Positions 2,334 through 23,070 of a stretch of DNA of 64,000 nucleotides are shown one piece after another. The notes beneath the pieces are model-generated. The model ran no database searches. It was not told where the DNA came from and saw only the letters and a program-made list of their open reading frames with translations. The DNA comes from Tahibacter soli (lineage in GTDB: Bacteria > Pseudomonadota > Gammaproteobacteria > Xanthomonadales > Rhodanobacteraceae). The stretch lies in assembly GCF_025717065.2 (NCBI RefSeq), contig NZ_JAOVZO020000003.1, positions 1-64,000 on the forward strand. Reading direction: 5' to 3'. Both the position numbers and the translations under genes were made by a program. Every line of letters begins with the position of its first letter. Position 1 is the first letter of the stretch.

Positions 2334-4196
2334 ATGCCTTTGCGCAGGGACGTCCTGAAGTGGAGCATCGCCGCCAGCGGCGCCGGCCTGCTGCCGAAAG
2401 CCGCGCGCGCGGCCGCCGACCCGAAAGCGATGCTCGTGTACCTGTGTCCGCCCGACGGCGAAGCGCCGGAGCTCGCAACGCCGAGCCCGCCGGCGCGGCC
2501 GTTCGTGCAGCCGCTGTTCGTGCCGCCGATCAAGCAGCCGGTAGAGCGGCTCGTGCCGCCGCCCGATCCGCGCGCGCATCAATTGTATAAAGATTATCTG
2601 CCGCGCAAGTTCTACGAAATCCGCGAGCAGGAATTCGTCTGGTGCTACCACCCCGACGCGCCGTACGACAAGGGCAGCGGATCGTGGGGCTTCGACGGTT
2701 CGACGCCCGGGCCGACGTACCACGCGCGCTACGGCGAACCCGTGCTCGTGCGCCGCTACAACGAGCTGCCGACCGTGGGCGTGTCGAAGGTGAACTTCGC
2801 GCTGCCGTCGACGACGACGCACCTGCACAACGGCCACACGGCGTCGGAAAGCGACGGCCAGCCGCAGGACTGGATCGACTCCGGCGAGTTCTGGGACCAC
2901 CACTACGCGAACTTCCCGGCGCGGCAGGACCCGCGCGAGAAGCTCACGACGCTGTGGTACCACGACCATCGCATGGACTTCACCGCGGCGAACGTCTACG
3001 CCGGCCTCGACGGCTTCTACCTCTTGTTCGACGACGAGGATTCCGGCGACGAGAACGATGCGAACCCGCGCGCGTGGCGCCTGCCGAGCGGCGACTACGA
3101 CGTGCCGCTGATCTTCCACGACATCCTGTTCGACGAGAACGGGCAGGTGCGCTGGAACTCGTTCAACACCGACGGCATTCTCGGCGACCGCTACACGGTC
3201 AACCGCAAGATACAGCCGTTCTTCGAGGTCGAGGCGCGCAAGTACCGCTTCCGTCTGCTCAACGGCGGACCGTCGCGCTTCTATCGCTTCGCGCTGTCGA
3301 CCGGAAAACCCTTTTGCGTGCTGACCGGCGACGGCAACGTGCTGCCCGAGCCGATCGACGCCGACCAGATCTATCTCTCGGTCGCGCAGCGCGTGGACGT
3401 CGTGCTCGACTTCTCGCAGCACCGGCCGGGCGACAGGATCCACCTCGTCAACAACCTCGAACAGACGAACGGCAAGGGGCCGTCGGGCCGCACGCTCGAT
3501 CCGCCGGTGCCGATCCTCGAATTTCGCGTGAAGGCCGCGACCGGCCCCGATCCGAGCCGCGTGCCGAAGCGCCTGCGACCGCTGCCGGTCGTCGACATGA
3601 GCCTCGTCAAGCAGCACCGCGTATGGGAGTTCGACTACGACGGCGGCCTGTGGACCGTCAACGGCAAGGTGTTCGAACCCAACCGCATCGACGCGGGCGT
3701 CGAGCGGGGCTCGGCCGAGATCTGGACGATCCGCAACGGCGGCAACAGCTGGTCGCATCCGGTGCACTGCCACTTCACCGAGTTCATCATTCTCGAAGTG
3801 AACGGACGGCCGATCCATCCGACGACGCTGCAGGATCACGTCGACGGCCGCCACGTGTTCACCGAAAACCTCGACCCCGACAACGGCAAGCGACCGCGCG
3901 TGCACACGTTCATGGGCGGGCAGCGCCGCGACGTCGCGACGATCCTGCCCGGCGACGAGATCAAGGTGTACATCCGCTTCAGCGACTTCCTGGGCAAGTA
4001 CGTCATGCACTGCCACAACGTCGTGCACGAAGACCACGCGATGATGATCCGCTGGGACATCGTCGAACCCGGCAAGGGCTTCGTCGGTTCGCGTTCGGTG
4101 CGGCAGGTGTATGGCACGCCGCCGGCGCCGCCGCATCTGGAGCCGCGCCCGGCGAACGGCACGCAGCAGGCCGACCAGGTGGAGGACGACCGATGA
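2334..4196 (+). CDS. Tat-exported multicopper oxidase
   Basis: A 620-residue multicopper oxidase of the three-cupredoxin type. The start at MPLRRDVLKW gives a twin-arginine signal (RRDVLK) followed by an Ala-rich hydrophobic stretch, so export is probably folded and metal-loaded. All four copper-binding motifs are visible: HLHNGH near 163, WYHDH near 208, HPVHCHF near 474, and HCHNVVHEDHAMM near 559. The last holds the type 1 Cys, its His ligands and a Met at the axial position. The substrate cannot be told from sequence; CotA-like, bilirubin-oxidase-like and Mn-oxidising relatives share these motifs. The stop overlaps the next start in an ATGA arrangement, so it is translationally coupled to a SCO-domain protein. 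A copper-handling or copper-dependent oxidation locus is the likely context. Confidence 0.93.
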   Translation: MPLRRDVLKWSIAASGAGLLPKAARAAADPKAMLVYLCPPDGEAPELATPSPPARPFVQPLFVPPIKQPVERLVPPPDPRAHQLYKDYLPRKFYEIREQEFVWCYHPDAPYDKGSGSWGFDGSTPGPTYHARYGEPVLVRRYNELPTVGVSKVNFALPSTTTHLHNGHTASESDGQPQDWIDSGEFWDHHYANFPARQDPREKLTTLWYHDHRMDFTAANVYAGLDGFYLLFDDEDSGDENDANPRAWRLPSGDYDVPLIFHDILFDENGQVRWNSFNTDGILGDRYTVNRKIQPFFEVEARKYRFRLLNGGPSRFYRFALSTGKPFCVLTGDGNVLPEPIDADQIYLSVAQRVDVVLDFSQHRPGDRIHLVNNLEQTNGKGPSGRTLDPPVPILEFRVKAATGPDPSRVPKRLRPLPVVDMSLVKQHRVWEFDYDGGLWTVNGKVFEPNRIDAGVERGSAEIWTIRNGGNSWSHPVHCHFTEFIILEVNGRPIHPTTLQDHVDGRHVFTENLDPDNGKRPRVHTFMGGQRRDVATILPGDEIKVYIRFSDFLGKYVMHCHNVVHEDHAMMIRWDIVEPGKGFVGSRSVRQVYGTPPAPPHLEPRPANGTQQADQVEDDR

Positions 4197-6379
4197 ACCG
4201 CCGCGAATGGCTCGGTCTTTCCGACGGTGCCGCCTGCCGCGTCACGCCGGTGCCGAACGTCGTCGTCACGACGCACGAAGGTCGCCGCGCGCTGTTCCAC
4301 GACGATCTCGCACGCGGCAGGATCGTGCTCGTGCAGTTCGCGTCGCTCGCCGACGACGCGGGCTACCCGGTGCTCGCGAACGTCGCCCGCGTGCAGGCGC
4401 TGCTCGGCGAACGTCTCGGTCGCGATGTGCACATCTGCACGATTACTACCGACGCGCAGAGCGACACGCCGCGCGCGCTCGCCGACGCCGCGAGGCGTCT
4501 CGGCGCGAAGCCGGGCTGGTGGTTCCTGACCGGCGAGCCGGCCGCGCTCGCGACGCTCAAGGCGCATTTCTTCCAGCACGGCCACGCGCACGGCGGCGAC
4601 GCCGAAGACTGCTCGCGCGGCGTCATGCGCTACGGCAATCCCGCGACCGGCCTTTGGGGCTCGGTGCCGGCGAAAGCGGAACCCGATTGGATCGCCGAAC
4701 GCCTGTCGTGGCTCGCCGCGCGCGGGACGCCCCACGGCGCGCCGCGGCGCCGCGGTCCGGCCGCGCTCGCGGCGCTCTGCGTCGCATTGTTGCCCGCGAT
4801 GTCGCGCGGAGAGCCGCATTCGGGCCATCGGTACCCGCAGCCGTATCTCGCCGCGTCGACGCAGACGACGGTCGGCGACGTGACGACCGTCGTCACCGGC
4901 GCGAGCCTGTTCGAACCCTCGCAGCCGTTCGTCGATCCGCCCGGCACGAACCTGTTGCCGACGATCTACACGAACCTGTTCGATTCGAACGGCGAGGAGA
5001 TGCTCAACACGCTGCCTTCGACGCCGACCGTGCCGTACAACCTGCACGACGGCGTGCCGGTGGTGACGACGATCGACCGCGTCTCGCCGACCACCGACCT
5101 CGCCGACGCGCTGGACCGCATCGACACGGTCGCGCGCGACGCGCGGCGCGGTCGCGACGACGAAGACGCCGCGCGCCGCGCGATCGACCGCGCGATCGAC
5201 ATCCTCGAGGGCAATCCGATCGAGAACCGCGCGTACAGCGGCTTTCCGCTGCTGCACTACACCGGGCCGCTGAAACTGAAAAAAGTGGAACCCGTGCTCG
5301 ACGCGAACGGCAACACGATCGGCGGCAACGTGAACGTGCACCAGATCTGGTACGACAACCACATCGAGTCGGATACCGCGATGCTCGACCCGAGCGCCGT
5401 GCAGGGCGTGCCGTGGACGATCACGTACACGCTCGACGTGCTCGATCGCGGTCGCGACGACTTCTCGCCGTTCGCGTTCTACGACGACGCGCCGAGCGGA
5501 CCGAAGCCCGGCGAATTCGGACGGCCGAACGTCGGCATGGACCAGACGTTCTTTCCGATGGACGAGGGCACGCGCACCGTTCTCAAGGTGAAGATGGCGC
5601 CGGCGAAATACTGGAGCCTCACGTACACGTGGGGCTGGCGCTGGCATGCGCCGCGCGCGCAGGTGACCGAGAACCGCCTGAAGGTGGTCGACGGCAAGGA
5701 TCTGTATCGGTGGGAAGCCGACGTGTTCGGCGAAAACCCGCGCGCGAGCGAGGCGGCGAAGCTCGCGGCGATCGCGAAGATCGGCGACCGCGCGCCGCCG
5801 AAAGTCCTCTGGCGGCTCCTGCGCGACGCGCGCAGGAGCGCGGCGGCGCGCGACTGGAAGCGCGTCGTCGCGCAGGTGGCCGACATGCGCGTCGCGTTCG
5901 ACGACTACAAGGACCGCACGCGCCTGCCACGCGACGTGAAGATCGATCCGGACGCCGACCTCACCCTGTTCTATGCGAACAACACGATCCACGGCCAGTT
6001 CACCGACGGCGCGGCGACGACGTTCGCCAAATACCAGTCGCGCGGCACGCCGATAAAAATCACGCTGCTCAACGGCGACTACTACGACCATCGCTACATG
6101 AACGTCGACTTCGGCGGCGGGCGAGGATGGGAGAACCAGTTCAAGTCGTCGGTGCGCGTCGGCGGCTCGGGCTGCTGGTTCACGTTCGGCCGTGCGTATA
6201 TCAATATCAATGTGGCGCAGCCGGTGCGCGTGCCGCCGGCGACGCCGCGCAAGGGCCACGAAGATACGCTCGGCCGCCACCGCGTGAATCTGACGCTCAA
6301 CGCCGATCCGTCGCGGCGGCTGCGGTTCTATCAGTTCGACCCGACGCATCACGATGTCGCGATTTTTTCGATTCACTAG
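4193..6379 (+). CDS. Cys-less SCO-like domain fused to a large unknown domain
   Basis: A 728-residue protein whose ATG overlaps the multicopper oxidase stop. Residues 1-175 follow the SCO/thioredoxin-fold plan (VLVQFASLADDAGYPVL, ICTITTDAQSDTP, WWFLTGEP). However, the CxxxC copper motif expected after the first strand is absent (ADDAGYP instead), and the later copper His is not apparent. Residues 186-203 form a hydrophobic segment after RRRG that resembles an internal signal anchor. The remaining 525 residues match no family I know and are rich in Trp, Tyr and His (WGWRWHAPR, NGDYYDHRYMN, DPTHHDVAIF). If translated as drawn, the SCO-like part is cytoplasmic and the large domain periplasmic. 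The 3' end overlaps the next gene by 26 bases. A start error or an ancient fusion could also explain the layout. Confidence 0.88.
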   Translation: MNRREWLGLSDGAACRVTPVPNVVVTTHEGRRALFHDDLARGRIVLVQFASLADDAGYPVLANVARVQALLGERLGRDVHICTITTDAQSDTPRALADAARRLGAKPGWWFLTGEPAALATLKAHFFQHGHAHGGDAEDCSRGVMRYGNPATGLWGSVPAKAEPDWIAERLSWLAARGTPHGAPRRRGPAALAALCVALLPAMSRGEPHSGHRYPQPYLAASTQTTVGDVTTVVTGASLFEPSQPFVDPPGTNLLPTIYTNLFDSNGEEMLNTLPSTPTVPYNLHDGVPVVTTIDRVSPTTDLADALDRIDTVARDARRGRDDEDAARRAIDRAIDILEGNPIENRAYSGFPLLHYTGPLKLKKVEPVLDANGNTIGGNVNVHQIWYDNHIESDTAMLDPSAVQGVPWTITYTLDVLDRGRDDFSPFAFYDDAPSGPKPGEFGRPNVGMDQTFFPMDEGTRTVLKVKMAPAKYWSLTYTWGWRWHAPRAQVTENRLKVVDGKDLYRWEADVFGENPRASEAAKLAAIAKIGDRAPPKVLWRLLRDARRSAAARDWKRVVAQVADMRVAFDDYKDRTRLPRDVKIDPDADLTLFYANNTIHGQFTDGAATTFAKYQSRGTPIKITLLNGDYYDHRYMNVDFGGGRGWENQFKSSVRVGGSGCWFTFGRAYININVAQPVRVPPATPRKGHEDTLGRHRVNLTLNADPSRRLRFYQFDPTHHDVAIFSIH

Positions 6380-8435
6380 CGCGATCGCGGCGATGCTGTT
6401 CGCCGCCGCGGCGTTCGCCGGGGACGCGACGCGTATGACGGTCGCGGTCGACGTGCCGGCCGTGACGCTCGTCGACGCCGGCGGCAAGCGTGTCGCGCTG
6501 CGCGACGCGCTTGCGGGGCCCGAGCCCGTTGCCGTGCAGTTCATTTTTACCACCTGCGGCACGATCTGCCCGGTGCTGACGCAGACCGCGGCGGCAGCGC
6601 GCCGCGCGATGCCGGCGCTGCGTGTCGTATCGGTGTCGATCGATCCCGACGAGGACACGCCGCCGCGGCTCGCCGCGTACGCGAAGCAACACGGCGCCGG
6701 CGACGGCTGGCGGTTTCTCACGGGCAGTGCCGACGACATCGTGGCGGTGCAGCGCGCGTTCGACGCATACGACGGCAGCAAGATGCGGCATCGGCCGCTG
6801 ACGTTCGTGCGCGCGTGGCCGCAAGACGCGTGGACGCGGCTCGAAGGCGCGTTTGCGGCGGCCGATATCGTCGATGCGGCAAGCGTCGCGGGCGATGCCG
6901 CGCTCGGACGGCGCCTGTACCGCGACGGCGTGCTCGCGTCGGGCGATGGGCTCGCCGCGCGCGCGCCCGGCGGCGCCGTGCTGACCGGCGCGTCGGCCGC
7001 GTGCGGGGCGTGCCATCGCGCGAGCGGCTACGGCGGGGTCGAAGGCCGCACGTTCGTACCGCCGATCGACGCGGCATCGCTGTTCGCCGCGCACGAGCCG
7101 CGCCGCGTCGACCGCTTTCGCGCGATGTATCAGGAGCAGCTGTCGCTCGACGCGATGACGCGTCTGCGCGCGGCGACGGCGCGTGCGCCGTACACGACGG
7201 CGACGCTGGCGAGGGCACTGGCGGACGGTGTCGGCGGCGACGGCCGCGCGTTCGACGCGCCGATGCCGCGCTATGCGCTCGCCGCGGCCGACCAGGCGAA
7301 TCTCCTGGCGTATCTCGCGACGCTGTCGGCGCGGGCGGCGCCGGGCGTCGACGACAAGGAAATCCATTTCGCGACGATCGTTGCCGGCGACGTCGATACC
7401 GGCAGGCGCGACGCGATGCTCGCGGTGATGCGCGCGTGGCTCGCGCAGCGCAACGCCGACGTCGCGCGCCGCGCTGCGCGACCGCCGAATCCGATGGGCT
7501 ACGAAGACGACCTGCCCGACGCGAACCGCACATGGACGCTCGACGTGTGGACGTTGACCGGCGATGCGTCGCAATGGTCCGCGCAGCTTGCGGCGCGTTA
7601 TCGCGAGCGTCCGGTATTCGCGCTGCTCGGCGGCACCGGCGACGGCGACTGGCGGCCGGTACACGCGTTCTGCGAAACGCAGCGCGTGCCGTGCGTATTC
7701 GCGCTGACCGACGTGCCCGCGGACGAGCACGGCGACTACAGCGTGTACCTGTCGGGCGGGCTGCCGCTCGAAGCGCGCGAGTTGGCCGCGCATCTCGCGG
7801 CGGCGTGGCGCGAAGGCGACCGGCTCGTGCAGATCGCGTCGGCGGATCGCCGCGGCAGCGTGCCGGCGGCGGCGCTGCGCGATGCGCTGGCCGGCACGAG
7901 CGTTCCGGTGCCGGTCGATCGCTGGCGCGACGAAGGCGGATCGACGACGGTCGTGCTGTGGCTGGGCGATGAAGCATTGCGCAGATCCGCAACGAAGCTC
8001 GCCGCTTTCAAGCGGCTCGACCATATCTACGTTTCTCGCGCGCTGGCGGGCGATGCGATCGCGGCGTGGCCGGCCGAGCTGCGCGACAAGACCGTGCTGA
8101 TCGACCGCGAGGCGAGCGGCGACGCGCTGCCGCACGCGTACCGCGCACGCGCGTGGCTGCGCTCGCACGGCGCGGCGGGCGACGCCGAAGCGACGAGACT
8201 GGCGACGTACTACGTCATGAGCGCGACGGAGTCGGCGGTTGCGCAACTGCTCGACCGGTGGTCGCGCGAGCTCTTCATCGAAACGATCGAACGCGAGGCG
8301 GAACTCGTGCCGAACCCGGGGCCGTATCCGGCGCTGTCGCTGGGGCCGGGGCAGCGCGTGGCGGCGAAGCGGTGCCGGTTCGTGGGGTATGGCGACGAGG
8401 CGAGGGCGAGCACCGCCGTCCGATCCGGGCTTTGA
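6354..8435 (+). CDS. SCO / cytochrome c / periplasmic-binding-like fusion protein
   Basis: A 693-residue exported protein. Residues 1-22 are a Sec signal peptide ending AAAAFAG. Residues 30-190 are a canonical SCO1/SenC domain with the copper motif C68-GTI-C72, the SVSIDPDEDTP strand and a His in KMRHRPL near 146. Residues 200-330 are a cytochrome c domain with haem-binding CGACH at 217-221 and a probable axial Met in APMPRY. From about 345 a third domain resembles the fold of branched-chain amino-acid-type periplasmic binding proteins (FATIVAGDVDTGRRDAML). The start overlaps the preceding gene by 26 bases, so the three genes are one operon. The combination suggests electron transfer coupled to copper delivery for the neighbouring oxidase. 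That link is inference. Confidence 0.9.
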   Translation: MSRFFRFTSAIAAMLFAAAAFAGDATRMTVAVDVPAVTLVDAGGKRVALRDALAGPEPVAVQFIFTTCGTICPVLTQTAAAARRAMPALRVVSVSIDPDEDTPPRLAAYAKQHGAGDGWRFLTGSADDIVAVQRAFDAYDGSKMRHRPLTFVRAWPQDAWTRLEGAFAAADIVDAASVAGDAALGRRLYRDGVLASGDGLAARAPGGAVLTGASAACGACHRASGYGGVEGRTFVPPIDAASLFAAHEPRRVDRFRAMYQEQLSLDAMTRLRAATARAPYTTATLARALADGVGGDGRAFDAPMPRYALAAADQANLLAYLATLSARAAPGVDDKEIHFATIVAGDVDTGRRDAMLAVMRAWLAQRNADVARRAARPPNPMGYEDDLPDANRTWTLDVWTLTGDASQWSAQLAARYRERPVFALLGGTGDGDWRPVHAFCETQRVPCVFALTDVPADEHGDYSVYLSGGLPLEARELAAHLAAAWREGDRLVQIASADRRGSVPAAALRDALAGTSVPVPVDRWRDEGGSTTVVLWLGDEALRRSATKLAAFKRLDHIYVSRALAGDAIAAWPAELRDKTVLIDREASGDALPHAYRARAWLRSHGAAGDAEATRLATYYVMSATESAVAQLLDRWSRELFIETIEREAELVPNPGPYPALSLGPGQRVAAKRCRFVGYGDEARASTAVRSGL

Positions 8436-9118: not shown

Positions 9119-10078
9119 ATGAAGATTCGAACGCTGCTTTTGATGCTTTCTGCAACTTTCCCGGCGCACGCCGACGAACCCCAGCGCCAGTCGCTCGGCG
9201 ACGCCTGGTGGACCGGTCCGATGCTCGCGAATTCCGCCTCGACGCTGCCGCGCGGGCACTACCTCATCGAACCGTATCTGTACGACGTGCGCACGAACGG
9301 CGCGTTCGACCGCGACGGCAACCGGCACGGCACGAAGCGCTCGCACGGTTACGGCTCGCTGACGTATATGACCTACGGCGTCACCGACACCTTGTCGCTG
9401 AGCCTGATCCCGACGTTCGGCTACAACGATCCCGCCGAAGGCCTCTCGAGTTCCGGCATCGGCATGGGCGACGTGTCGATCGCCGCGCAGTATCGGTTGA
9501 CGCAGTTTCAGCCGGGGCACTGGATGCCGACGATTTCGCTCGCGCTGCAGCAGACGTTGCCGACCGGCAAGTACGACAAGCTCGGCGACCGCGCCGCCGA
9601 CGGCTTCGGCAGCGGCGCGAACACCACGATGATCGGGATTTATTCACAAACGTATTTCTGGATGCCAAACGGACGCATCCTGCGCATGCGGCTGAACCTG
9701 ACGAAGGCGATCTCCGATCGCGTCGGCCTGACCGATGCGAGCGTCTACGGCACCGAGGACGGCTTTCGCGGATCGGCGCGGCCCGGCGCGAGCTTCGTCG
9801 CTAACGCGGCCTGGGAGTACAGCATCACGCGCCACTGGGTGCTCGCGCTCGATGCGGTGTATCGGCAGACGCACAACACGCGCGTGCGCGGATTCGACGC
9901 GTCGGGCGCGGCGGCGACGTTCGATCTCGGGTCGAGCCGGTCGTTCGCGCTCGCGCCGGCGGTCGAGTACAACTTCAATGCGAATGTCGGGGTGTTGCTG
10001 GGGATGCGCGCGATTGTCGGTGGGCGCAATACGTCCGCACATGTCACGCCGGCTGTCGCTGTGAATATTGTTCGTTGA
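9119..10078 (+). CDS. Outer-membrane beta-barrel protein, phenol-MetA-pathway transporter type
   Basis: A 319-residue protein with a signal peptide (MKIRTLLLMLSATFPAHA) and alternating amphipathic beta strands typical of a small outer-membrane barrel. The pattern LPRGHYLIEPYLYD, then YGVTDTLSLSLIPTFGY, then PTISLALQQTLPTGKYD is what I associate with the 'MetA-pathway of phenol degradation' transporter family. Terminal strands (VGVLLGMRAIVGGRN, ending AVNIVR) are consistent with a barrel, although the last residue is Arg rather than the usual aromatic. No catabolic enzymes are adjacent, so the substrate is unknown. It stands alone between two long intergenic gaps. Confidence 0.8.
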   Translation: MKIRTLLLMLSATFPAHADEPQRQSLGDAWWTGPMLANSASTLPRGHYLIEPYLYDVRTNGAFDRDGNRHGTKRSHGYGSLTYMTYGVTDTLSLSLIPTFGYNDPAEGLSSSGIGMGDVSIAAQYRLTQFQPGHWMPTISLALQQTLPTGKYDKLGDRAADGFGSGANTTMIGIYSQTYFWMPNGRILRMRLNLTKAISDRVGLTDASVYGTEDGFRGSARPGASFVANAAWEYSITRHWVLALDAVYRQTHNTRVRGFDASGAAATFDLGSSRSFALAPAVEYNFNANVGVLLGMRAIVGGRNTSAHVTPAVAVNIVR

Positions 10079-13451: not shown

Positions 13452-16400
13452 ATGCATCGCTATCTGCACCGCGCGACCTTCGCGCTCATCGCCGCGCTCG
13501 CGTTCGACGCCGCCGCCGCGCCGTGTCCGACCACCACCATCACGCCCGCGACGGCGCTGCCCGGTGCGACGGTCGGCACCAACTACGCGCAGTCGTTCAC
13601 GGCCGCGAACAGCAACGCGCAGGCGTTCGCATTCGTCGTCACGAGCGGGCTGCCGTCCAACAGCGGCCTTGCGTTCGCGACTACCGGCGCGGCGAGTGCC
13701 GACTGGTCCGGCACGCCGACGCAGGCCGGCAACTATCTCGTCACCGTGACCGCGGTCGACGCCCTCGGCTGCGGCGGCGGTCGTACGTATGCGCTCGCCG
13801 TCGCGCAAGGCGCGCAGACGATCGCGTTCACGACGACCGCGCCGGCCGCAACGGTCGGCGGCGCGCCGTACGCGGTCGCCGCAACCGCCACGTCGGGCCT
13901 GCCGGTGACGTTCGCGATCGATGCCGCGTCGAGCGGCGTCTGCGCGATCGCCGGTAGCAGCGTCACGTTCCAGTCGCCCGGCACCTGCACGATCAACGCG
14001 AACCAGTCCGGCGATGCCAACTGGACCGCCGCGCCGCAGACGCAGCAAAGCGTCGCCGTCGGCCGCGCCGACCAGACGATCGCGTTCACGTCGATCGCGC
14101 CGTCGAACGCGGCGTTCAACGGCGCGACGTACACCGTCGCGGCAACCGCGACGTCGGCGCTGCCGGTCGCGTACGCGATCGACGCGTCGTCGAGCGCCGT
14201 CTGCACGATCGCCGGTACTACGGTGTCGTTCACCGGCGTCGGCACCTGCACGATCAACGCGAACCAGGCCGGCAACGCGAACTGGAACCCGGCGCCGCAG
14301 GCGCAGCAGAGCTTCGCCGTCGGCCGTGCCGATCAATCGGTGACGTTCACCTCGACCGCGCCGGCCGGCGCCGTCGTCGGCGGCGCGACCTACAGCGTCG
14401 CGGCAACGGCAACGTCGGGCCTCCCCGTGACGTTCGCGATCGACGCGGCGTCCGGCGCCGTCTGCACGCTCGCCGGCACGACCGTGTCGTTCGTCGGCAA
14501 CGGCACCTGCATGATCAACGCGAACCAGGCCGGCAACGCGAACTGGAATGCCGCGCCGCAAGCGCAGCAGAACGTCGCGGTCGGCACCGGCAATCAGGCG
14601 ATCACGTTCACGTCGACCGCGCCGACGGCCGCGACGTTCGGCGGCGCGACGTACGCCGTCGCGGCGACCGCGACCTCGGGCCTGACGGTGACGTTCGCAA
14701 TCGACGCATCGGCCGCGTCGGTCTGCACGATCGCCGGCAGCACGGTCAGCTTCACCGGCGCCGGCACCTGCGTCGTCAACGCGAACCAGGCCGGCAACGC
14801 CAACTGGAATGCCGCGCCGCAGGCGCAGCAGAGTTTCGCGGTCGGCAAAGCCTCGCAGACCATCACGTTCACGTCGACGGCGCCGGCCGCCGCGACGTTC
14901 GGCGGTGCGACGTACACCGTCACCGCGACCGCGACATCGGGTCTGCCGGTGACGTTGACGATCGACGCGTCGTCGAGCGCCGTGTGCGCGATCGCCGGTT
15001 CGACGGTGTCGTTCACCGGCACCGGTACCTGCACCATCAACGCGAACCAGGCCGGCGACGCGAACTGGAACCCCGCGCCGCAAGCGCAGCAGAGCTTCAC
15101 GGTCGCGAAGGCGTCGCAGACGATCACGTTTACCTCGACCGCGCCGACCGGTGCGACGTTCGGCGGTGCGACCTACACGGTCACCGCGACCGCGAGTTCG
15201 GGCCTGCCCGTGACGTTCACGATCGACGCGGCGTCGAACGCGGTGTGTTCGATCGCCGGTGCCACCGTGTCGTTCACCGGCGCCGGCACCTGCACGATCA
15301 ACGCGAACCAGGCCGGCAACGCGAACTGGAACGCGGCGCCCCAAGCGCAGCAGAGCTTCACGGTCGCGCGTGCGTCGCAGACGATCACGTTCACGTCGAC
15401 CGCGCCGACCGGCGCGACGTTCGGCGGCGCGACGTATACGGTCACGGCGACCGCGAGTTCGGGCCTGCCGGTAGCGTTCACCATCGATGCGGCGTCGAGC
15501 GGCGTCTGCACGATCGCGGGTGCCGCCGTGTCGTTCACCGGCGCGGGCAGCTGCACGATCAACGCGAACCAGGCCGGCAACGCAAACTGGAACGCGGCAC
15601 CGCAGGCGCAGCAGAGCTTCGCGGTCGCGCGTGCGTCGCAGACGATCACGTTCACCTCGACCGCGCCGATCGGCGCGACGTTCGGCGGGCCGACCTACAC
15701 GGTCAGCGCGACCGCGACGTCGGGCCTGCCGGTGGCGTTCGCGATCGACGCGTCGGCGAGCGCCGTGTGCGCGATCGCCGGCTCCACCGTGTCGTTCATC
15801 GGTGCCGGCACCTGCGTCGTCAACGCGAACCAGGCCGGCGACACGAACTGGAACGCGGCGCCGCAGGTGCAGCAGACCTTCGCGGTCGCGCGTGCGTCGC
15901 AAACGATCACCTTCACCTCGACCGCGCCGACCGGCGCCACGATCGGCGCCGGGACGTACACCGTCACGGCGACGGCGACGTCCGGCCTGCCGGTGACGCT
16001 GACGATCAACGGGGCGTCGGGCGGGGTGTGTACGATCGCCGGTTCCACGGTGTCGTTCATCGGCGAAGGCACCTGCGCCATCAACGCGAACCAGGCCGGC
16101 AACGCGAACTGGAACGCCGCGCCGCCGGTGCAGCAGAGCTTTGCGGTCAGCAAGCGGCCGCAGACGATCACGTTCACCTCGACCGCGCCGGCCGGCGCCA
16201 CGTTCGGCAGCGCGGGCACCTACACCGTTGCGGCGAGCGCGACGTCGACCTTCACCGTGACGTTCTCGATCGACGCGGCGTCCGCCTCGGTCTGCACGAT
16301 CGCCGGCGACACCGTCACGATCATCGGCGCGGGCACCTGCACGATCAACGCGAACCAGGCCGGCGACGTGAGCTGGGCAGCCGCGCCGCAGGCGCAGCAG

Positions 16401-18419
16401 TCGTTCGCGGTCGCGCGCGGCTCGCAGACCGTGGCGTTCACGTCGACGCCGCCCGCGACGGCGGTCACCGGCGGCACGTACACCGTTGCCGCGACCGCGA
16501 CGTCCGGCCTCCTGCCTGCGTTCACGATCGACGCGGCGTCGAGCGCGGTCTGCGCGATCGCCGGCGACGTCGTCACGTTCCACACCGCCGGCACCTGCAC
16601 GATCAACGCCGACCAGGCCGGCGACACGAACTGGGCAGCGGCGCCGCAGGTGCAGCAGAGCATGACCGTCACCGCGTGCCTCGTGCTGGCCGTCGGCGAA
16701 GTCGCCAACGGCGAGATGCCGGGCGGCGCCGACATCTGCATCTCGAACGGCGCGGGCATCGATACCGAATACACCTACATCCCGATCAACTTCTCGGCGT
16801 CGACCGACGCGGCGATGAGCGTCGTAGCGAACAACATCCAGGGCGTCAGCGGTCCTCCGGCGCCGCGGCCCGGCAACGGCGGCGGCGTCACGCTCGCGCC
16901 GCTCGACGACGTTGACGCGCCGACCGCCGACGCCGAGCCGCATGCGGTCGAATCGCCGCCGGCGTTCGATCGTCCGCACGACCTTTCCGACCTCGTGCCG
17001 GCGCGCGGCGGCGGCGGGCCGCTCACGGTCGGCCAGCTGATCGACCTCAACGCGACGATCGGCAGCTGCGGCGCCGCGCCGAGCATCCGCAAGGGACGCG
17101 TCGAGGCGGTGTCGCCGCCGTCGGCCGGCCTGCAGCATCTGTATGCGGTGCAGGAAGTCGTCGAGACGGCGGTCGGCAGCGGCGTCTGGGTACCGGCGAT
17201 CGCCGGCGGCTACCAGACCATCGATTTCCAGAATTTCGTCGATTCGTTCGTCAAGCCGGCCAGTTCCGCCGCCGGCCTGCAGTCGACGCCGCAAGGATCG
17301 ATCGATGCCACCGCGACGCCGCCGCTGCTGTTCACCGGCGCGATGGATCTGGCGGCCGCGAACTTCGGCGCGTTGACCGACGTCGACCTCAACGAAGGCG
17401 TGATCGTGTTCTTCACGAGGACGATGAACGCACTGAGTCCGGCGGCGACCGCGGGCGCACAGGGCCTGTTCCAGCCGCGCGACCTGTTCTCGTCGGCGAG
17501 CTGCGGCGGCAGCAACGAGGGCGAGATCCTCTATCTGCCCGTGCCCGATCCGACGGGCGTGATCAACTCGAACGTGCGCACGGTGTCGAGCCTCTACCAG
17601 CTCGCGATGCCGGCGCTGGCGCACCACTACGCGCACCTCACCAATGCCGCGCGTCGCCTGTACATGAACGGCGCGGCGCCGTTCGAGGAAACCTGGCTCG
17701 ACGAGGGCATCGCCTACGCGATGCAGGAGCTCGTGTTCTTCAACGCATCGGCCGGCCTCGCGCCGCGCGGCAACAGCCAGCTGTCGTCGCTCACGACCGG
17801 CCCGTTCGCGTCGCTGCGCGTGCGCGACTTCAACATGCACCAGAACCCGATGTTCGGGGCGATGCGCGACTACTTCTATCAACTGAACAGTACGAACGGA
17901 AACCGGCGCGCCGGGCCGCTGCGGCAGCCCGCGTATTCGGCGAGCACGACGCCGACGCGCCACGACGTCGTCACGCGGCAGTACACCGTCACGTTCACCT
18001 TCCTGCGCTACATGCTCGACCGCAAGAACACCGGCGACGCGGCGCTGCTCAATGCGCTGGTCAACACGAGCAACGTCGGCATCGCCAATCTGCAGGCCGC
18101 GATGAACGTGTCGATCGAGGACTGGACGCGCGACTTCCTGGTAGCGATGTACGCCGACGATGCCGTCGCCGGCATCGCGCCGGCGTACATGGCGCCGTCG
18201 TGGAACTACCGATCGGTCTACGGCGGCCTCGGCGGCTTCCCGCTGGCGGTGCTGCCGCTGACGAACGCCGTCGCGCAGCCGTTCGCGCTCGGCCCGGGTG
18301 GCGGCGCGAGCTATCAGCGCTTCGGCATCGCGGCCGGCCAGGTGGCCACCGTGACGCTGACGCAGAGCGGCGGCACGCCGACGGCGCAGATCCGCACGGC
18401 GATTCTGCGGACGAAGTAA
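13452..18419 (+). CDS. Giant secreted Ig-like repeat protein with degenerate metallopeptidase-like domain
   Basis: A 1655-residue protein with a signal peptide (to about residue 22, FDAAAAP). Residues 25-120 form a putative Ig-like (He_PIG) domain. Eleven tandem repeats of about 87 residues follow, each with the pattern QTITFTSTAP, then VCTIAG, then GTCTINANQAG and NWNAAPQAQQ. The two Cys per unit probably form a disulphide. From about 1080 the C-terminal region changes character and holds a zinc-peptidase-like helix (ALAHHYAHLTNA at 1389-1400) followed by EETWLDEGIAYAMQEL, the arrangement seen in M30 hyicolysin-type domains. The catalytic Glu of HExxH is replaced by His, so proteolysis is doubtful. 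An adhesin or matrix role is likely. A hairpin follows the stop. Confidence 0.9.
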   Translation: MHRYLHRATFALIAALAFDAAAAPCPTTTITPATALPGATVGTNYAQSFTAANSNAQAFAFVVTSGLPSNSGLAFATTGAASADWSGTPTQAGNYLVTVTAVDALGCGGGRTYALAVAQGAQTIAFTTTAPAATVGGAPYAVAATATSGLPVTFAIDAASSGVCAIAGSSVTFQSPGTCTINANQSGDANWTAAPQTQQSVAVGRADQTIAFTSIAPSNAAFNGATYTVAATATSALPVAYAIDASSSAVCTIAGTTVSFTGVGTCTINANQAGNANWNPAPQAQQSFAVGRADQSVTFTSTAPAGAVVGGATYSVAATATSGLPVTFAIDAASGAVCTLAGTTVSFVGNGTCMINANQAGNANWNAAPQAQQNVAVGTGNQAITFTSTAPTAATFGGATYAVAATATSGLTVTFAIDASAASVCTIAGSTVSFTGAGTCVVNANQAGNANWNAAPQAQQSFAVGKASQTITFTSTAPAAATFGGATYTVTATATSGLPVTLTIDASSSAVCAIAGSTVSFTGTGTCTINANQAGDANWNPAPQAQQSFTVAKASQTITFTSTAPTGATFGGATYTVTATASSGLPVTFTIDAASNAVCSIAGATVSFTGAGTCTINANQAGNANWNAAPQAQQSFTVARASQTITFTSTAPTGATFGGATYTVTATASSGLPVAFTIDAASSGVCTIAGAAVSFTGAGSCTINANQAGNANWNAAPQAQQSFAVARASQTITFTSTAPIGATFGGPTYTVSATATSGLPVAFAIDASASAVCAIAGSTVSFIGAGTCVVNANQAGDTNWNAAPQVQQTFAVARASQTITFTSTAPTGATIGAGTYTVTATATSGLPVTLTINGASGGVCTIAGSTVSFIGEGTCAINANQAGNANWNAAPPVQQSFAVSKRPQTITFTSTAPAGATFGSAGTYTVAASATSTFTVTFSIDAASASVCTIAGDTVTIIGAGTCTINANQAGDVSWAAAPQAQQSFAVARGSQTVAFTSTPPATAVTGGTYTVAATATSGLLPAFTIDAASSAVCAIAGDVVTFHTAGTCTINADQAGDTNWAAAPQVQQSMTVTACLVLAVGEVANGEMPGGADICISNGAGIDTEYTYIPINFSASTDAAMSVVANNIQGVSGPPAPRPGNGGGVTLAPLDDVDAPTADAEPHAVESPPAFDRPHDLSDLVPARGGGGPLTVGQLIDLNATIGSCGAAPSIRKGRVEAVSPPSAGLQHLYAVQEVVETAVGSGVWVPAIAGGYQTIDFQNFVDSFVKPASSAAGLQSTPQGSIDATATPPLLFTGAMDLAAANFGALTDVDLNEGVIVFFTRTMNALSPAATAGAQGLFQPRDLFSSASCGGSNEGEILYLPVPDPTGVINSNVRTVSSLYQLAMPALAHHYAHLTNAARRLYMNGAAPFEETWLDEGIAYAMQELVFFNASAGLAPRGNSQLSSLTTGPFASLRVRDFNMHQNPMFGAMRDYFYQLNSTNGNRRAGPLRQPAYSASTTPTRHDVVTRQYTVTFTFLRYMLDRKNTGDAALLNALVNTSNVGIANLQAAMNVSIEDWTRDFLVAMYADDAVAGIAPAYMAPSWNYRSVYGGLGGFPLAVLPLTNAVAQPFALGPGGGASYQRFGIAAGQVATVTLTQSGGTPTAQIRTAILRTK
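13812..16676 (+). repeat. Eleven tandem 261-bp repeats inside the Ig-like protein gene
   Basis: Eleven in-frame units of about 261 bp. Units 5-9 are the most alike at protein and DNA level, and the outer units are more diverged. This is consistent with expansion from the centre. The reading phase is kept throughout. Confidence 0.9.
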
Positions 18420-19153: not shown

Positions 19154-19630
19154 TCACGCGTGCGGCGCCGCAGTCGTCCCTGTCTCGCACCACCGCTTGA
19201 GCACGACCAACGTCACGTCCCAATAGAACGCGAGATGCCCGCGCACGGCATCGTCGACGAGATTGCCGAGCGCGAGCGTCAGCGTCGTTCCGGCAGGCGA
19301 GGGCGCGAGGGCGAATTCGATCGTCACGCGATGTTCCGGCGTATCGGGAAACGCGCGGCGCGACAGCGAGCTGTAGTGCGAGTAGCGCAACAGGCGCGAT
19401 GGTTCGAACGCGAGCACGGTGCCGGTATTCTCGAACGGAATCTTGCCGTGCAGCCTGCCGCGAAACGCGATCGGGCCGCCGACCTGCCAGGCCGTGTCCA
19501 GCGCGAATTCGTCGTCGGACATCCACGTGGCCACTTGTCGCGGTTCGGTCAACGCGTGCCAGACGGCGTCGGGCGGCACGTCGATGTCGATCGACTGGAC
19601 GATGCGCGCGGGCTTCGATTCGGCGGTCAT
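19154..19630 (-). CDS. SRPBCC / AHSA1-like domain protein
   Basis: A 158-residue START-like protein. The pattern ARIVQSIDIDVPPDAVWHAL, then EPRQVATWMSD, then GGPIAFRGRLHGKIPFENTG and LRYSHYSSLS is typical of the 'activator of Hsp90 ATPase homologue 1-like' (AHSA1) branch of the SRPBCC superfamily. These proteins bind hydrophobic ligands in a deep cavity and often sit near regulators. The start MTAESKP is preferred over an in-frame upstream ATG, which would run into the region preceding the divergent kinase gene. The ligand is unknown. A hairpin repeat lies directly downstream. Confidence 0.87.
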   Translation of the reverse strand: MTAESKPARIVQSIDIDVPPDAVWHALTEPRQVATWMSDDEFALDTAWQVGGPIAFRGRLHGKIPFENTGTVLAFEPSRLLRYSHYSSLSRRAFPDTPEHRVTIEFALAPSPAGTTLTLALGNLVDDAVRGHLAFYWDVTLVVLKRWCETGTTAAPHA

Positions 19631-19749
19631 GGCGGCTCTCGTACGGGATCGGCACGGCATGGGGGCGCCGGGCACTGTCCCAAAGGCCGAGGGCGCATCG
19701 CGCCCCGCGTTCGGTACCATCGCGCGAGACCCGCCGCACGGAACCGACC

Positions 19750-22700
19750 TTGCCCGCCAACCCGCTCGTCATCGCCGCAGGCCTCGTCTGGCTCGGCGGC
19801 CTGTTCGCGATCGCGCTGTGGGGCGAACGGCGCGGCGAGTGGCTGTCGCGGCACTGGGCCTACGTCTACGCGCTGTCGCTCGCGGTGTACTGCACGTCGT
19901 GGACGTTCTACGGCACCGTCACGCAGGCCGCGCATTCGGGCTGGTGGCTGCCGCCGACGTTCATCGGCACGATCCTGCTGTACGCGTTCGGCATCGGCGT
20001 GCTCGAGCGCCTCGTGCGCATCGCGCGCGAGTACAACGCGAGTTCCATCGCCGACCTCGTCGCCGCGCGCTTCGGCCGCAGCTCGGGCCTCGCCGCGCTC
20101 GTCACGGCCGTCGCCGTGCTCGGCATCGTTCCGTACATCGCGCTGCAGCTCAAAGCCGTCGCGATGAGCTATTCGCTGCTCACGCACGGCGGCGACGAAA
20201 TGAGCGCGCCGGCGTGGCAGGACAGCGCGCTGTGGGTCGCGCTCGTCATGGCGCTGTTCGCGATCCTGTTCGGCACGCGCCGCGCGTCGGCCGCCGAACA
20301 CAATCGCGGCCTCGTGCTCGCGATGGCGTTCGAAGCGGTGCTGAAACTCGGCGCGATGCTCGCGCTCGCGGCGGTGCTCGCCGAAGTCGACGTCGGCAAC
20401 GCCGTGCCGCGGGTGTCGAACAGCGACGGCCTGTTCGGCCTCGTCGTGCTCGGCGCGCTTGCGATGTTCACATTGCCGCACCAGTTCCACGTCGGCGTCG
20501 TCGAATGCCGCGAAGCGAATCACCTGAAGACCGCGCGCTGGCTGTTTCCGCTGTACATGGTGCTGATCGCGCTGCCGGTGCTGCCGCTCGCGCGCGCCGG
20601 CGACGCGATGCTCGCCGCGCGCGGCGTGCCGTCCGATCTCTACGTGCTCGCGCTGCCGCTGGCCACCGGCCATCCGAACCTCGCGCTGCTCGCGTTTCTC
20701 GGCGGTCTCTCGGCTGCGACCGGCATGGTGATCCTCGCGACGCTCGCGCTCAGCCTCATGATCGGCAACCACTGGCTCGCGCCGGTGATGCTGCGCGCCG
20801 GTTGGGCGCGGCGCCACGGCGGCGACCTGCGCGGCGCGGTGCTGATGCAGCGGCGCGTCGGCATCGTCGCGATCGTGCTGCTCGCGTGGCTGTACAGCCG
20901 CGCGGTCAGCGCGAGCGAAGCGCTGGCCGACATCGGCGCGAGTTCGTTCTCGGCGCTCGGCACGCTCGCGCCGGCGGTCATCGCGGCGATCTACCGCCCC
21001 GCGATCGGCGCGCGTGCGGTCGGCTGCGGCATCGCCGCCGGTATCGCCGTGTGGATTTATATCCTTTTGCTGCCGACGCTGCTCGCGGCTACCGGCAGCG
21101 ATGCCGCGTGGGTGTCGAGCGGTCCGTTCGGCATCGCGTGGCTCGCGCCCGACACGCTGTTCGGCCTCGACAACTGGGGGCGGCTGAACCGGGCGGTGAT
21201 CCTGTCGCTCGCGGCGAATCTCGCGGTGATGTCGCTCGTCGCGCAGCGCGGCGGCGCGACCGAGCGCGGCGCGCGCGTCGCGGTCGCCGGCGCCGATCTG
21301 CGCCGCGTCGCACGGCGGTTTCTGTCTCACGAACGCGTCGCCGCGCTGTTCGCGGATGTCGCCGACGCGCGCGCCGTGCCCGAGCCGCGCGTCGCGGCGG
21401 TCGAACACGAGCTCGCGGCGGTGATCGGCGCGGCGTCGGCGCGATTGCTCGTCGACACCGCGCGGCGCGACGCGGGGCCGGAACTCGACCAGGTGGCCAC
21501 GATCGTCGGCGAAGCGTCGGCCGATCTGCGCTTCAATCAGCGCGTGCTCGAAGCCGCGCTGCAGAACATGAGCCAGGGCATCTGCGTCGTCGACGGCGAA
21601 CTGCGCGTGGTCGCGTGGAACCGGCGCTACGCCGAACTGTTCGGCTTTCCGCCGGAACTGCTGGAACTCGGCCGGCCGGTGGCCGACCTGTTGCGCTTCA
21701 ATCTCGAGCGCGGATTCGCGACGGGCGATGCGATCGAGGAACAAGTGGAAAAGCGCCTCGCGCACTGGCGCGCCGGCACGCCGCACGTCTCGGAGCGGCG
21801 CTTTCCCGACGGCACGATCGTCGAAATCCGCGGCAACCCGATGCCGGGCGGCGGCTTCGTCGCGACGTTTACCGACGTCACCGCGTTTCGCCACAGCGAA
21901 GACGAACTGCGGCGCGCGAACGAAACGCTCGAACTGCGCGTCGTCGAACGCACGGCCGAACTCGAAGCGGCGACCCGCGAAGCGCAGCGCGCGAACGCCG
22001 CGAAAAGCCGCTCGCTCGCGGCGGTGAGTCACGATCTCGCGCAGCCGTTGAACGCGGCGCATCTCTTCACACATGCGCTCGCGCAGCAGTTGAAGCATGC
22101 GCAATACCGCGAAGCCGTGACGAACATCGACGGCGCGCTGAGTTCGGCCGAAGGGCTGCTCGGCGGACTGCTCGAAGTCGCAAGACTCGACGCGGGTGGC
22201 TTCAAGCCGGAGCGCCGCGCGTTCCGTCTCGACGAGCTGTTGCAGCATCTCGCGGCGGAGTTCCGCGTGCTGGCGCGGGAGAAAGGCCTGGAGCTGCGCG
22301 CGGTCGCGACGCATGCGTGGGTCGACAGCGATCCGCAGCTGCTGCGGCGCGTACTGCAGAACTTCCTCGCGAACGCCGTGCGCTACACGGCGAGAGGCCG
22401 CGTGCTGATCGGCTGCCGCAGACGCGGCGGCGAGATCGTGATCGAAGTGTGGGACAGCGGGCCGGGCATATCCCCGGAAAACCAGTCGTTGATCTTTGAA
22501 GAATTCCGCCGACTCGACCGCGGCGGCGGCGGGCTCGGACTAGGTCTCGCGATTGCAGAACGCATCGCGCGACTGCTCGGCCACGAACTGCGGCTGCGCT
22601 CATGGCCGGGACGCGGCAGCGTATTCGCGCTCGCGGTACCGAGAGCGGCGCCCGACGCGACGGCGCTGACGCCGGCGCGCACCGAACGCGTCCGCGCGCC

Positions 22701-23070
22701 GAAAAGCCGGGTGCTGGTGGTCGACAACGACGCGGCGGTGCTGAAAGCGATGCAGGCATTGCTGGCCGGCTGGCAATGCGAAGTGGCGGCGGCGTCCGAT
22801 GCGTCGCAAGCGCTCGCGGCATGCGCGCAGGCGAAGCCGGACGTGCTGCTGCTCGACTACCACCTCGACGGCGACGTGACGGGGCCGGAAGTGCGTGCGC
22901 AGATCGTGGCGGCGCACGGCGAGATTCCGTGCGTGGTGATCACGGCGGACCAGAGCGATGCGACGCGGGCGGATTGCGAGGCGGCAGGGTGCTTGATCCT
23001 CTACAAGCCGTTGAAGCCGTTGGCGTTGAAGTCGTTGATGGCGAGGGTGCTGGCGGCAGTCGTCAAGTAA
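19750..23070 (+). CDS. Hybrid histidine kinase with solute-symporter-type membrane domain (CbrA/NahK-like)
   Basis: A 1106-residue sensor. Residues 1 to about 500 are a sodium:solute-symporter-like membrane domain (SWTFYGTVTQAAHSGWW, GIVPYIALQLKAVAMSYSL). A PAS domain follows near 600-700 (NMSQGICVVDGELRVVAWN), then a coiled linker, a HisKA domain with phospho-acceptor H761 (AAVSHDLAQPLN), a HATPase domain (NFLANAVRY, VWDSGPGI, GLGLAIA) and a C-terminal receiver with Asp in LLLDYHLDG near 1034. No ATG lies near the first membrane helix. The in-frame TTG before PANPLVIA is the likely start, as further upstream the frame is not protein-like. CbrA relatives sense nutrient status. No partner regulator is adjacent. 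Confidence 0.9.
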   Translation: MPANPLVIAAGLVWLGGLFAIALWGERRGEWLSRHWAYVYALSLAVYCTSWTFYGTVTQAAHSGWWLPPTFIGTILLYAFGIGVLERLVRIAREYNASSIADLVAARFGRSSGLAALVTAVAVLGIVPYIALQLKAVAMSYSLLTHGGDEMSAPAWQDSALWVALVMALFAILFGTRRASAAEHNRGLVLAMAFEAVLKLGAMLALAAVLAEVDVGNAVPRVSNSDGLFGLVVLGALAMFTLPHQFHVGVVECREANHLKTARWLFPLYMVLIALPVLPLARAGDAMLAARGVPSDLYVLALPLATGHPNLALLAFLGGLSAATGMVILATLALSLMIGNHWLAPVMLRAGWARRHGGDLRGAVLMQRRVGIVAIVLLAWLYSRAVSASEALADIGASSFSALGTLAPAVIAAIYRPAIGARAVGCGIAAGIAVWIYILLLPTLLAATGSDAAWVSSGPFGIAWLAPDTLFGLDNWGRLNRAVILSLAANLAVMSLVAQRGGATERGARVAVAGADLRRVARRFLSHERVAALFADVADARAVPEPRVAAVEHELAAVIGAASARLLVDTARRDAGPELDQVATIVGEASADLRFNQRVLEAALQNMSQGICVVDGELRVVAWNRRYAELFGFPPELLELGRPVADLLRFNLERGFATGDAIEEQVEKRLAHWRAGTPHVSERRFPDGTIVEIRGNPMPGGGFVATFTDVTAFRHSEDELRRANETLELRVVERTAELEAATREAQRANAAKSRSLAAVSHDLAQPLNAAHLFTHALAQQLKHAQYREAVTNIDGALSSAEGLLGGLLEVARLDAGGFKPERRAFRLDELLQHLAAEFRVLAREKGLELRAVATHAWVDSDPQLLRRVLQNFLANAVRYTARGRVLIGCRRRGGEIVIEVWDSGPGISPENQSLIFEEFRRLDRGGGGLGLGLAIAERIARLLGHELRLRSWPGRGSVFALAVPRAAPDATALTPARTERVRAPKSRVLVVDNDAAVLKAMQALLAGWQCEVAAASDASQALAACAQAKPDVLLLDYHLDGDVTGPEVRAQIVAAHGEIPCVVITADQSDATRADCEAAGCLILYKPLKPLALKSLMARVLAAVVK

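What the first reader, a model, noticed from the sequence alone, without database searches (positions are those of the whole stretch)
2334..8435. Coupled multicopper oxidase / SCO-like / SCO-cytochrome c operon: candidate undescribed redox system
Three genes overlap end to start (4 and 26 bases), so they are co-translated. One is a Tat multicopper oxidase with all copper motifs. One carries a SCO-like domain without copper cysteines plus a large unknown domain. One joins a copper-competent SCO domain, a c-type haem domain (CGACH) and a binding-protein-like domain. Known SCO proteins deliver copper to oxidases, and c-type cytochromes carry electrons. The set therefore suggests a dedicated oxidase with its own copper loading and electron partner. 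I know of no described system with this exact set; that statement is from memory.
Basis: partly seen in the sequence, partly recalled or inferred. Interest (0 to 1): 0.75.

Follow-up and report, generated by a model that had tools for sequence, protein, structure and literature searches.

The report
Iodide-oxidase-like copper enzyme gene cluster
Three overlapping bacterial genes encode a copper enzyme and its helper proteins in the layout of the known bacterial iodide oxidase, with helper genes fused together, and the same layout turns up in the genus of an ammonia-oxidising bacterium, a group in which the cause of iodide oxidation is an open question.

Summary
In detail: a Tat-type multicopper oxidase (A), a Cys-less SCO domain fused to a ~525-residue unknown domain (B+C), and a copper-competent SCO domain fused to a haem-c/binding-protein-like protein (D+E), overlapping by 4 and 26 bases. 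It recurs: A-B-C stand together at 13 of 15 loci with a close C relative (14 genomes, one an Acidobacteriaceae MAG), with B, C, D and E as separate genes elsewhere. So the window carries gene fusions, not new domains. B lacks CxxxC in 13 of 13; D keeps it in 6 of 6. The seven A's put in a tree form one clade. The unfused order (oxidase, SCO, ~60-76 kDa unknown, SCO, unknown) is that published for the iodide-oxidase (iox) cluster of Iodidimonas; D+E resemble parts of the manganese-oxidase operons mnxG and mof. I read it as an iox-like cluster with fused genes: a new variant of a known kind. It is not filed as IOX: no authentic IoxA/IoxC sequence could be had, ioxF is missing, the substrate is untested. 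In the genus of an amoA-bearing genome both this five-gene form and a form followed by a CusA/CzcA exporter occur, which bears on an open question about iodide oxidation by ammonia oxidisers.

The parts
2334..4196 (+). A: multicopper oxidase (IoxA-like by context), 620 aa, twin-arginine signal
4193..4196 (+). 4-base overlap of A stop and B start (ATGA)
4193..4753 (+). B: SCO-like domain without CxxxC; twin-arginine start kept but hydrophobic part of the signal lost
4754..4804 (+). internal hydrophobic, signal-like stretch (residues 188-204) at the fusion point
4793..6379 (+). C: ~525-residue domain (IoxC-like partner by context), fused to B here, a separate ORF in relatives
6354..6379 (+). 26-base overlap of C end and D start
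6354..6848 (+). D: SCO domain with CGTIC and distal KMRH, with signal-like hydrophobic N-terminus
6849..7346 (+). E, first half: cytochrome c domain (CGACH, MPRY)
7347..8435 (+). E, second half: periplasmic-binding-protein-like domain (Pfam match only in some relatives)

Best explanation
The operon makes an exported multicopper oxidase of the iodide-oxidase (iox) kind together with its own partner and copper-loading proteins. Shown: gene content, order, motifs, fusions, recurrence. Inferred: A is exported folded by the Tat route and passes electrons from a small substrate at its type-1 copper to O2 at the trinuclear site, giving water; the most likely substrate is iodide, giving I2/HOI. C is the oxidase's partner subunit, as IoxC is in the purified enzyme. 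B, a SCO fold without copper cysteines, can hardly do SCO thiol or copper chemistry and most likely docks or stabilises C; their fusion here points the same way. D, which keeps CxxxC and the distal His, loads copper into A; E, the haem protein fused to D here, most likely keeps D reduced or drains electrons from it. In the window B+C and D+E have become single proteins, and how the B half reaches the periplasm is unsettled.
For: Published iox cluster: six genes in one direction, ioxA multicopper oxidase (62 kDa), ioxB/D/F SCO1/SenC, ioxC (71 kDa) of unclear function but found in the purified enzyme, ioxE unclear (PMC9415286 passages). Unfused clusters L019 and L033 have A (66 kDa), B SCO-like (25.5-26.6), C (66.7-69.0), D SCO (23.6-24.1), E (about 62, start assumed) in that order, and C is 75-76 kDa in the three exporter-type clusters measured. 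A, B, C travel together: 13 of 15 loci; A's with B-C are one clade, 7 of 7 (the other six loci were found later and are not in the tree), support 100/100; pairwise identities of A, B and C correlate at 0.91-0.96 over 21 pairs. All four copper motifs in 13 of 13 A's. A 2025 paper says ioxA and ioxC homologues occur in some Nitrosomonas (PMC12335899 passages); in the family of G102 (three AMO copies) C occurs in 10 of 125 genomes, all in one genus, eight of them close and two distant relatives.
Against: No authentic IoxA or IoxC sequence could be compared. 0 of 385 alphaproteobacterial genomes drawn had C, although the known iodide oxidisers are alphaproteobacteria (whether Iodidimonas was drawn is unknown, and the tool warns that an empty answer without a positive control shows nothing). 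No third SCO (ioxF) is near: the only other SCO match of this genome is about 380 kb away. The published IoxE is not described as a haem protein. IoxA is called distant from CotA, while A's best solved relatives are bilirubin oxidase and CotA-like proteins (E 2e-59, 2e-52). Seven clusters continue into a CusA/CzcA-type exporter, which would suit metal handling. Of six genomes with C tested for AMO only G102 has it.
Confidence: 0.6

Rival explanations
1. A copper or heavy-metal defence operon: A is a periplasmic Cu(I)/metal oxidase like CueO, with SCO proteins as copper carriers.
For: Seven of the 15 C loci continue into HlyD + CusA/CzcA-type exporter genes (L032 by reading the ORF only); A's best NCBIfam profile is CueO, far below its cut-off (168 vs 525 bits).
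Against: The window and five other clusters continue with D (and E) instead; by eye A has no Met-rich insert; the tested A's form a clade apart from the two other oxidase matches of this genome that were put in the tree (a third weak match was not).
Confidence: 0.15
2. A manganese(II) oxidase operon of the mnxG/mofA kind.
For: The mnxG operon of P. putida GB-1 has two SCO genes and a cytochrome-c/substrate-binding protein (PMC11409713); relatives of E sit in oxidase-FKBP-E or oxidase-FKBP-E-SCO runs like mof (L087, L083; PMC8218464).
Against: A is a 620-residue CueO/bilirubin-oxidase-type enzyme, not the large MnxG/MofA type (sizes of those recalled or as in L083); no FKBP or SurA-like gene in the three ORFs; C was matched in none of 18 other E regions.
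Confidence: 0.13
3. A laccase-like oxidase of unspecific phenolic substrates whose helpers are only for folding and copper loading.
For: IOX itself acts on ABTS, syringaldazine and other phenolics (PMC9415286); solved relatives are bilirubin oxidase, CotA, laccases.
Against: Ordinary laccases are not known to need such a set (recalled); A, B and C are retained together at 13 of 15 loci.
Confidence: 0.12

Closest known systems
Iodide oxidase (iox) gene cluster of Iodidimonas strains (IoxA and IoxC also in Roseovarius sp. A-2)
   Same: Order oxidase - SCO - ~60-76 kDa unknown - SCO - further unknown; two-part enzyme A + C by analogy; all genes in one direction
   Different: Here B+C and D+E are fused, no ioxF nearby, no gsp genes recognised among the neighbours scanned; homology to authentic Iox proteins untested; activity untested
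mnxG operon of Pseudomonas putida GB-1 (MnxG, beta-propeller, SCO, SCO, cytochrome-c/substrate-binding protein, SurA)
   Same: Oxidase with two SCO proteins and a cytochrome c joined to a substrate-binding-protein domain
   Different: Different oxidase type; no beta-propeller or SurA in the three ORFs; has C instead
mof operon (MofA, MofB/Mip, MofC cytochrome c, metallochaperone)
   Same: E matches the cytochrome genes of mof-like runs in L083 and L087
   Different: No FKBP protein; much smaller oxidase
Oxidase + SCO pairs beside type II secretion genes (L021, L022, Fuscovulum plasmid L046)
   Same: Oxidase followed by SCO; SCO fused to a haem domain in L021 and L022 (CxxCH read by eye)
   Different: B and C not found there (for L021, L022); oxidases form a separate clade

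Membership tests
Iodide oxidase (IOX) | Multicopper oxidase with four copper-binding regions (IoxA) | tested here: met
   Four motifs in the window and 12 of 12 relatives
Iodide oxidase (IOX) | Gene order A, SCO, C, SCO, E in one direction | tested here: met
   Unfused in L019, L033, L126, L128; as two fused pairs in the window
Iodide oxidase (IOX) | Sequence homology of A and C to authentic IoxA and IoxC | not testable with these tools
   Original paper not held; no named iox record found in plasmids
Iodide oxidase (IOX) | Third SCO gene (ioxF) in the cluster | tested here: not met
   Only one other SCO match in this genome, about 380 kb away; none matched downstream in L126 or L128
Iodide oxidase (IOX) | gsp genes in the flank | tested here: inconclusive
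   None recognised among the 14 window proteins scanned; a GspG-like pseudopilin 2.7 kb after E in L126
Iodide oxidase (IOX) | Oxidises iodide to iodine | not testable with these tools
   needs an assay
SCO copper chaperone (domain D) | CxxxC and distal His (CXXXCXnH, PMC9145763 passage) | tested here: met
   CxxxC 6 of 6; KMxH 5 of 6, not matched in L127
SCO copper chaperone (domain B) | CxxxC | tested here: not met
   absent in 13 of 13
MnxG/MofA manganese oxidase operon | MnxG- or MofA-type oxidase | tested here: inconclusive
   No MnxG or MofA sequence was at hand; A is 620 aa and its best profiles and solved relatives are CueO and bilirubin oxidase
MnxG/MofA manganese oxidase operon | SCO genes plus cytochrome-c/substrate-binding protein | tested here: met
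   D and E

The most novel reading that the evidence does not exclude
C is a cupredoxin-fold relative of multicopper oxidases that has lost its copper and become an obligate partner subunit, and B a dead SCO that carries it; the five-gene form is an iodide (or other inorganic anion/metal) oxidase with a built-in haem-linked copper-loading route, spread by transfer among distant bacteria including Acidobacteria and ammonia oxidisers, and it explains iodide oxidation by the latter.
Probability: 0.2. Interest if true: 0.7.

Novelty: new variant of a known kind. Interest (0 to 1): 0.5.

Why it matters
In the papers seen, IOX is known from a few alphaproteobacteria, and the roles of the Iox proteins other than IoxA are unclear. 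The fusions here (B with C, D with E) are hints of who works with whom, and the conserved lack of copper cysteines in B says it is not an ordinary SCO copper carrier. [quoted passage not shown] two genomes here (L126, L128), in the genus of an amoA-bearing genome that is probably Nitrosomonas, show A-B-C-D-E complete, so the question whether this cluster causes iodide oxidation by ammonia oxidisers becomes testable.

Tried and rejected
Fold of C: two AlphaFold2 models (mean pLDDT 72.6 and 72.9, pTM 0.79). In both cases Foldseek's 50 listed PDB rows are multicopper oxidases and laccases (plus a copper nitrite reductase and SufI), but at E 4e-4 to 5e-2, TM 0.1-0.3 and rmsd of about 16-23 A; in the viral library the two best rows are copper oxidases (E 4e-3, 0.13). 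Profile-profile comparison of C with A finds no kinship (probability 0.4%), and the PDB holds no significant sequence match (best E 0.1). I therefore do not claim a cupredoxin fold; it stays in the novel case.

Idea that B+C is a special new domain architecture: rejected; B and C are separate ORFs in the 12 other clusters with A-B-C. Idea that the set is confined to this genome: rejected. A plain CueO: set aside because of C and the separate clade. Plasmid searches found oxidase+SCO pairs in Skermanella and Rhodobacterales; a C relative (from L019) had no plasmid match. 385 alphaproteobacteria: no C. Promoter/terminator scan: 0 promoter-like and 1 terminator-like site, both no more than in shuffles. 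PHROGs: no match. Seven literature searches (listings of an open-access library) showed no paper that I recognised as describing the fused form; most subscription papers are not in that library.

Rows left out: the short fragment G973/L042 was not examined; L125 begins 49 bases before C, so A and B cannot be judged there; L003 (second copy in the Acidobacteriaceae MAG) has C without A or B; four distant C relatives (L049, L050, L129, L130) have no oxidase in the fetched stretch, one of them (L049) has a CxxxC SCO about 1 kb away. The tree has 7 of the 13 A's; the six found later were not added. Nine weak matches cover only the SCO part and were not counted as C; the neighbourhoods of five of them (G369, G107, G071, G246, G256) were fetched.
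Full report
Observation. The three ORFs are as described, at 2334-4196, 4193-6379 and 6354-8435 on the + strand, overlapping by 4 and 26 bases. GC of the stretch equals that of the window (69.5%). The next likely gene downstream starts at 9119, about 680 bases on; the nearest upstream ORF outside the oxidase that I take for a gene (1556-2164) runs the other way. No promoter- or terminator-like signal exceeds shuffles.

Domains. A is a Tat-type multicopper oxidase with all four copper motifs (HLHNGH, WYHDH, HPVHCH, HCHNVVHEDHAMM); best solved relatives are bilirubin oxidase and CotA-like proteins. B is SCO-like without CxxxC. C has no Pfam or NCBIfam match above cut-off, no PHROGs match and no significant sequence relative in the PDB. 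D has CGTIC and KMRH, E has CGACH and MPRY and a second half that is periplasmic-binding-protein-like: no match in the window, Peripla_BP_6 at 6e-13 in one of 3 relatives, weakly and below cut-off in L083, none in L087 or L126.

Recurrence. The whole gene-2 protein matched 12 of 398 genomes of the phylum, but only 3 of these (this genome, G366, G102) in the C part; the rest match the SCO part. With an alignment of C: 5 of 369 genomes of the class, this one included; 4 of 247 of the phylum of an Acidobacteriaceae MAG, three of them distant or short; 0 of 385 alphaproteobacteria; 10 of 125 of one family, eight close and two distant. These sets overlap in part. Close relatives stand at 15 loci in 14 genomes (window included). 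A and B lie directly upstream at 13: the window, L019, L033, L020, L031, L032, L048 (the MAG), L122, L123, L124, L126, L127, L128. The two others are L125 (contig begins just before C) and L003 (C alone). Four distant relatives of C have no oxidase nearby.

Two forms. Downstream of C, six clusters continue with D and, unless the contig ends (L127), E: window, L019, L033, L126, L127, L128. Seven continue with HlyD and a CusA/CzcA-type exporter: L020, L031, L032, L122-L125 (family tested in L020 and L031, BLAST in L122-L125, L032 read by eye; in L031 and L032 a gene lies between, Pfam glutamine cyclotransferase in L031). L048 ends inside C; L003 shows neither. Only in the window are B+C and D+E single ORFs; elsewhere they are separate, genes lying 15 to 106 bases apart where I measured (L122-L128 were not measured and some of their ORFs overlap). 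The fusions are therefore the peculiarity of this genome, and suggest that B works with C and D with E.

Motif conservation. CxxxC is absent from B in 13 of 13 (read from the alignment for seven; by pattern for six) and present in D in 6 of 6, with KMxH in 5 of 6. E has CxxCH and MPxY in 5 of 5. A has four motifs in 13 of 13 (in L126-L128 the last reads HEDHEMM). So B is a SCO fold that is kept without its copper cysteines.

Common history. In a tree of 23 oxidases the seven A's included form one clade (100/100). Pairwise identities of A, B and C among seven clusters correlate (0.95, 0.91, 0.96 over 21 pairs). In one genus of the G102 family both forms lie after the same genes (thymidylate synthase, dihydrofolate reductase and a decarboxylase by my reading of the ORFs; L020, L126, L128). 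The one same-genus genome of the window in the samples lacks C (G154). Patchy occurrence suggests transfer.

What is known. The iox cluster (ioxA-F) and the co-purification of IoxA and IoxC are described in PMC9415286 (abstract, passages and figure legends seen), and shortly in PMC5928188, PMC10556733, PMC12535851 (passages) and PMC4082002 (whole text). The original 2012 paper (PMC3346402) is not held. [quoted passage not shown] PMC11409713 (passages) lists the mnxG operon with two SCO genes and a cytochrome-c/substrate-binding protein; PMC8218464 (passages) the mof operon. The match in order, alternating SCO genes and protein sizes (A 60-70 kDa, C 59-76 kDa where a complete separate gene was measured) is why I read this as iox-like. 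That the haem protein corresponds to ioxE is inference: its published description is only 'unclear'.

The D-E pair is a wider module. E relatives occur in 12 of 369 genomes of the class, this genome and G544 included. Of 18 regions fetched around the others, 14 hold a SCO gene, 5 a gene matching the oxidase profile, none C; several of these contigs are only 3-8 kb, and oxidases of other types may escape my profile. L083 has oxidase-FKBP-E-SCO, the mof layout. So the iox-like core A-B-C has taken up, or shares, a copper-loading pair that also stands with other oxidases.

Ammonia oxidisers. Of six genomes with C tested, G102 alone has PF02461 (AMO), in three copies; the sequence P0004 looks like bacterial AmoA (recognised from memory). 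All 10 of 125 genomes with C in its family are in its genus; that this is Nitrosomonas, and that the other nine oxidise ammonia, is inference. L126 and L128 carry the complete A-B-C-D-E.

Uncertain. The window's B half has a twin-arginine start without the hydrophobic part, while a signal-like stretch sits at residues 188-204. Either the B half stays inside, or the protein is exported with A, or the fusion is recent and damaging. This weakens any claim that the window's copy works.

Verdict. New variant of a known kind: an iox-like operon with two gene fusions. Not filed as IOX, since homology to IoxA/IoxC could not be tested, ioxF is missing and the activity is unknown.

Noticed in passing
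window 13452-18419 (+): 1655-aa ORF with about 11 tandem copies of a 261-base (87-residue) unit (13815-16661) and a C-terminal part with a metallopeptidase-like 'EETWLDEGIAYAMQE' stretch (recognised from memory); no Pfam match at E 0.001.
   Followed up: partly
window 19399-23070 (+): Hybrid sensor kinase (PAS, HisKA, HATPase, response regulator).
   Followed up: no
window 4193-4804: Twin-arginine start without hydrophobic part, and an internal signal-like stretch at the fusion point of B and C: export of the B half is unclear.
   Followed up: partly
L074, L076, L084 (and L082, L079, L085): SCO + cytochrome-c/binding-protein pairs; in L074, L076 and L084 next to the same two unknown protein types (about 180-210 and 270-320 aa), in others near response regulators or giant proteins: a recurring module of unknown function.
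   Followed up: no
L021, L022, L046: Oxidase + SCO pairs (SCO fused to a haem domain in L021, L022, read by eye) beside type II secretion genes; L046 and L047 also lie near a peroxidase-family gene.
   Followed up: partly
L020, L126, L128: In one genus two different versions of the cluster (with D-E, or with a CusA/CzcA exporter) sit after the same chromosomal genes.
   Followed up: partly
L049 4435-7041 (-), L050 7091-9748 (-), L129, L130: Distant, longer relatives of domain C (736-885 aa) without an oxidase in the fetched stretch: C belongs to a wider unknown family.
   Followed up: partly
L023 5555-11829: An oxidase-like ORF (by eye), SCO and cytochrome-c/binding-protein gene followed by pseudopilin-like genes in a one-contig 5.4 Mb genome.
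   Followed up: no
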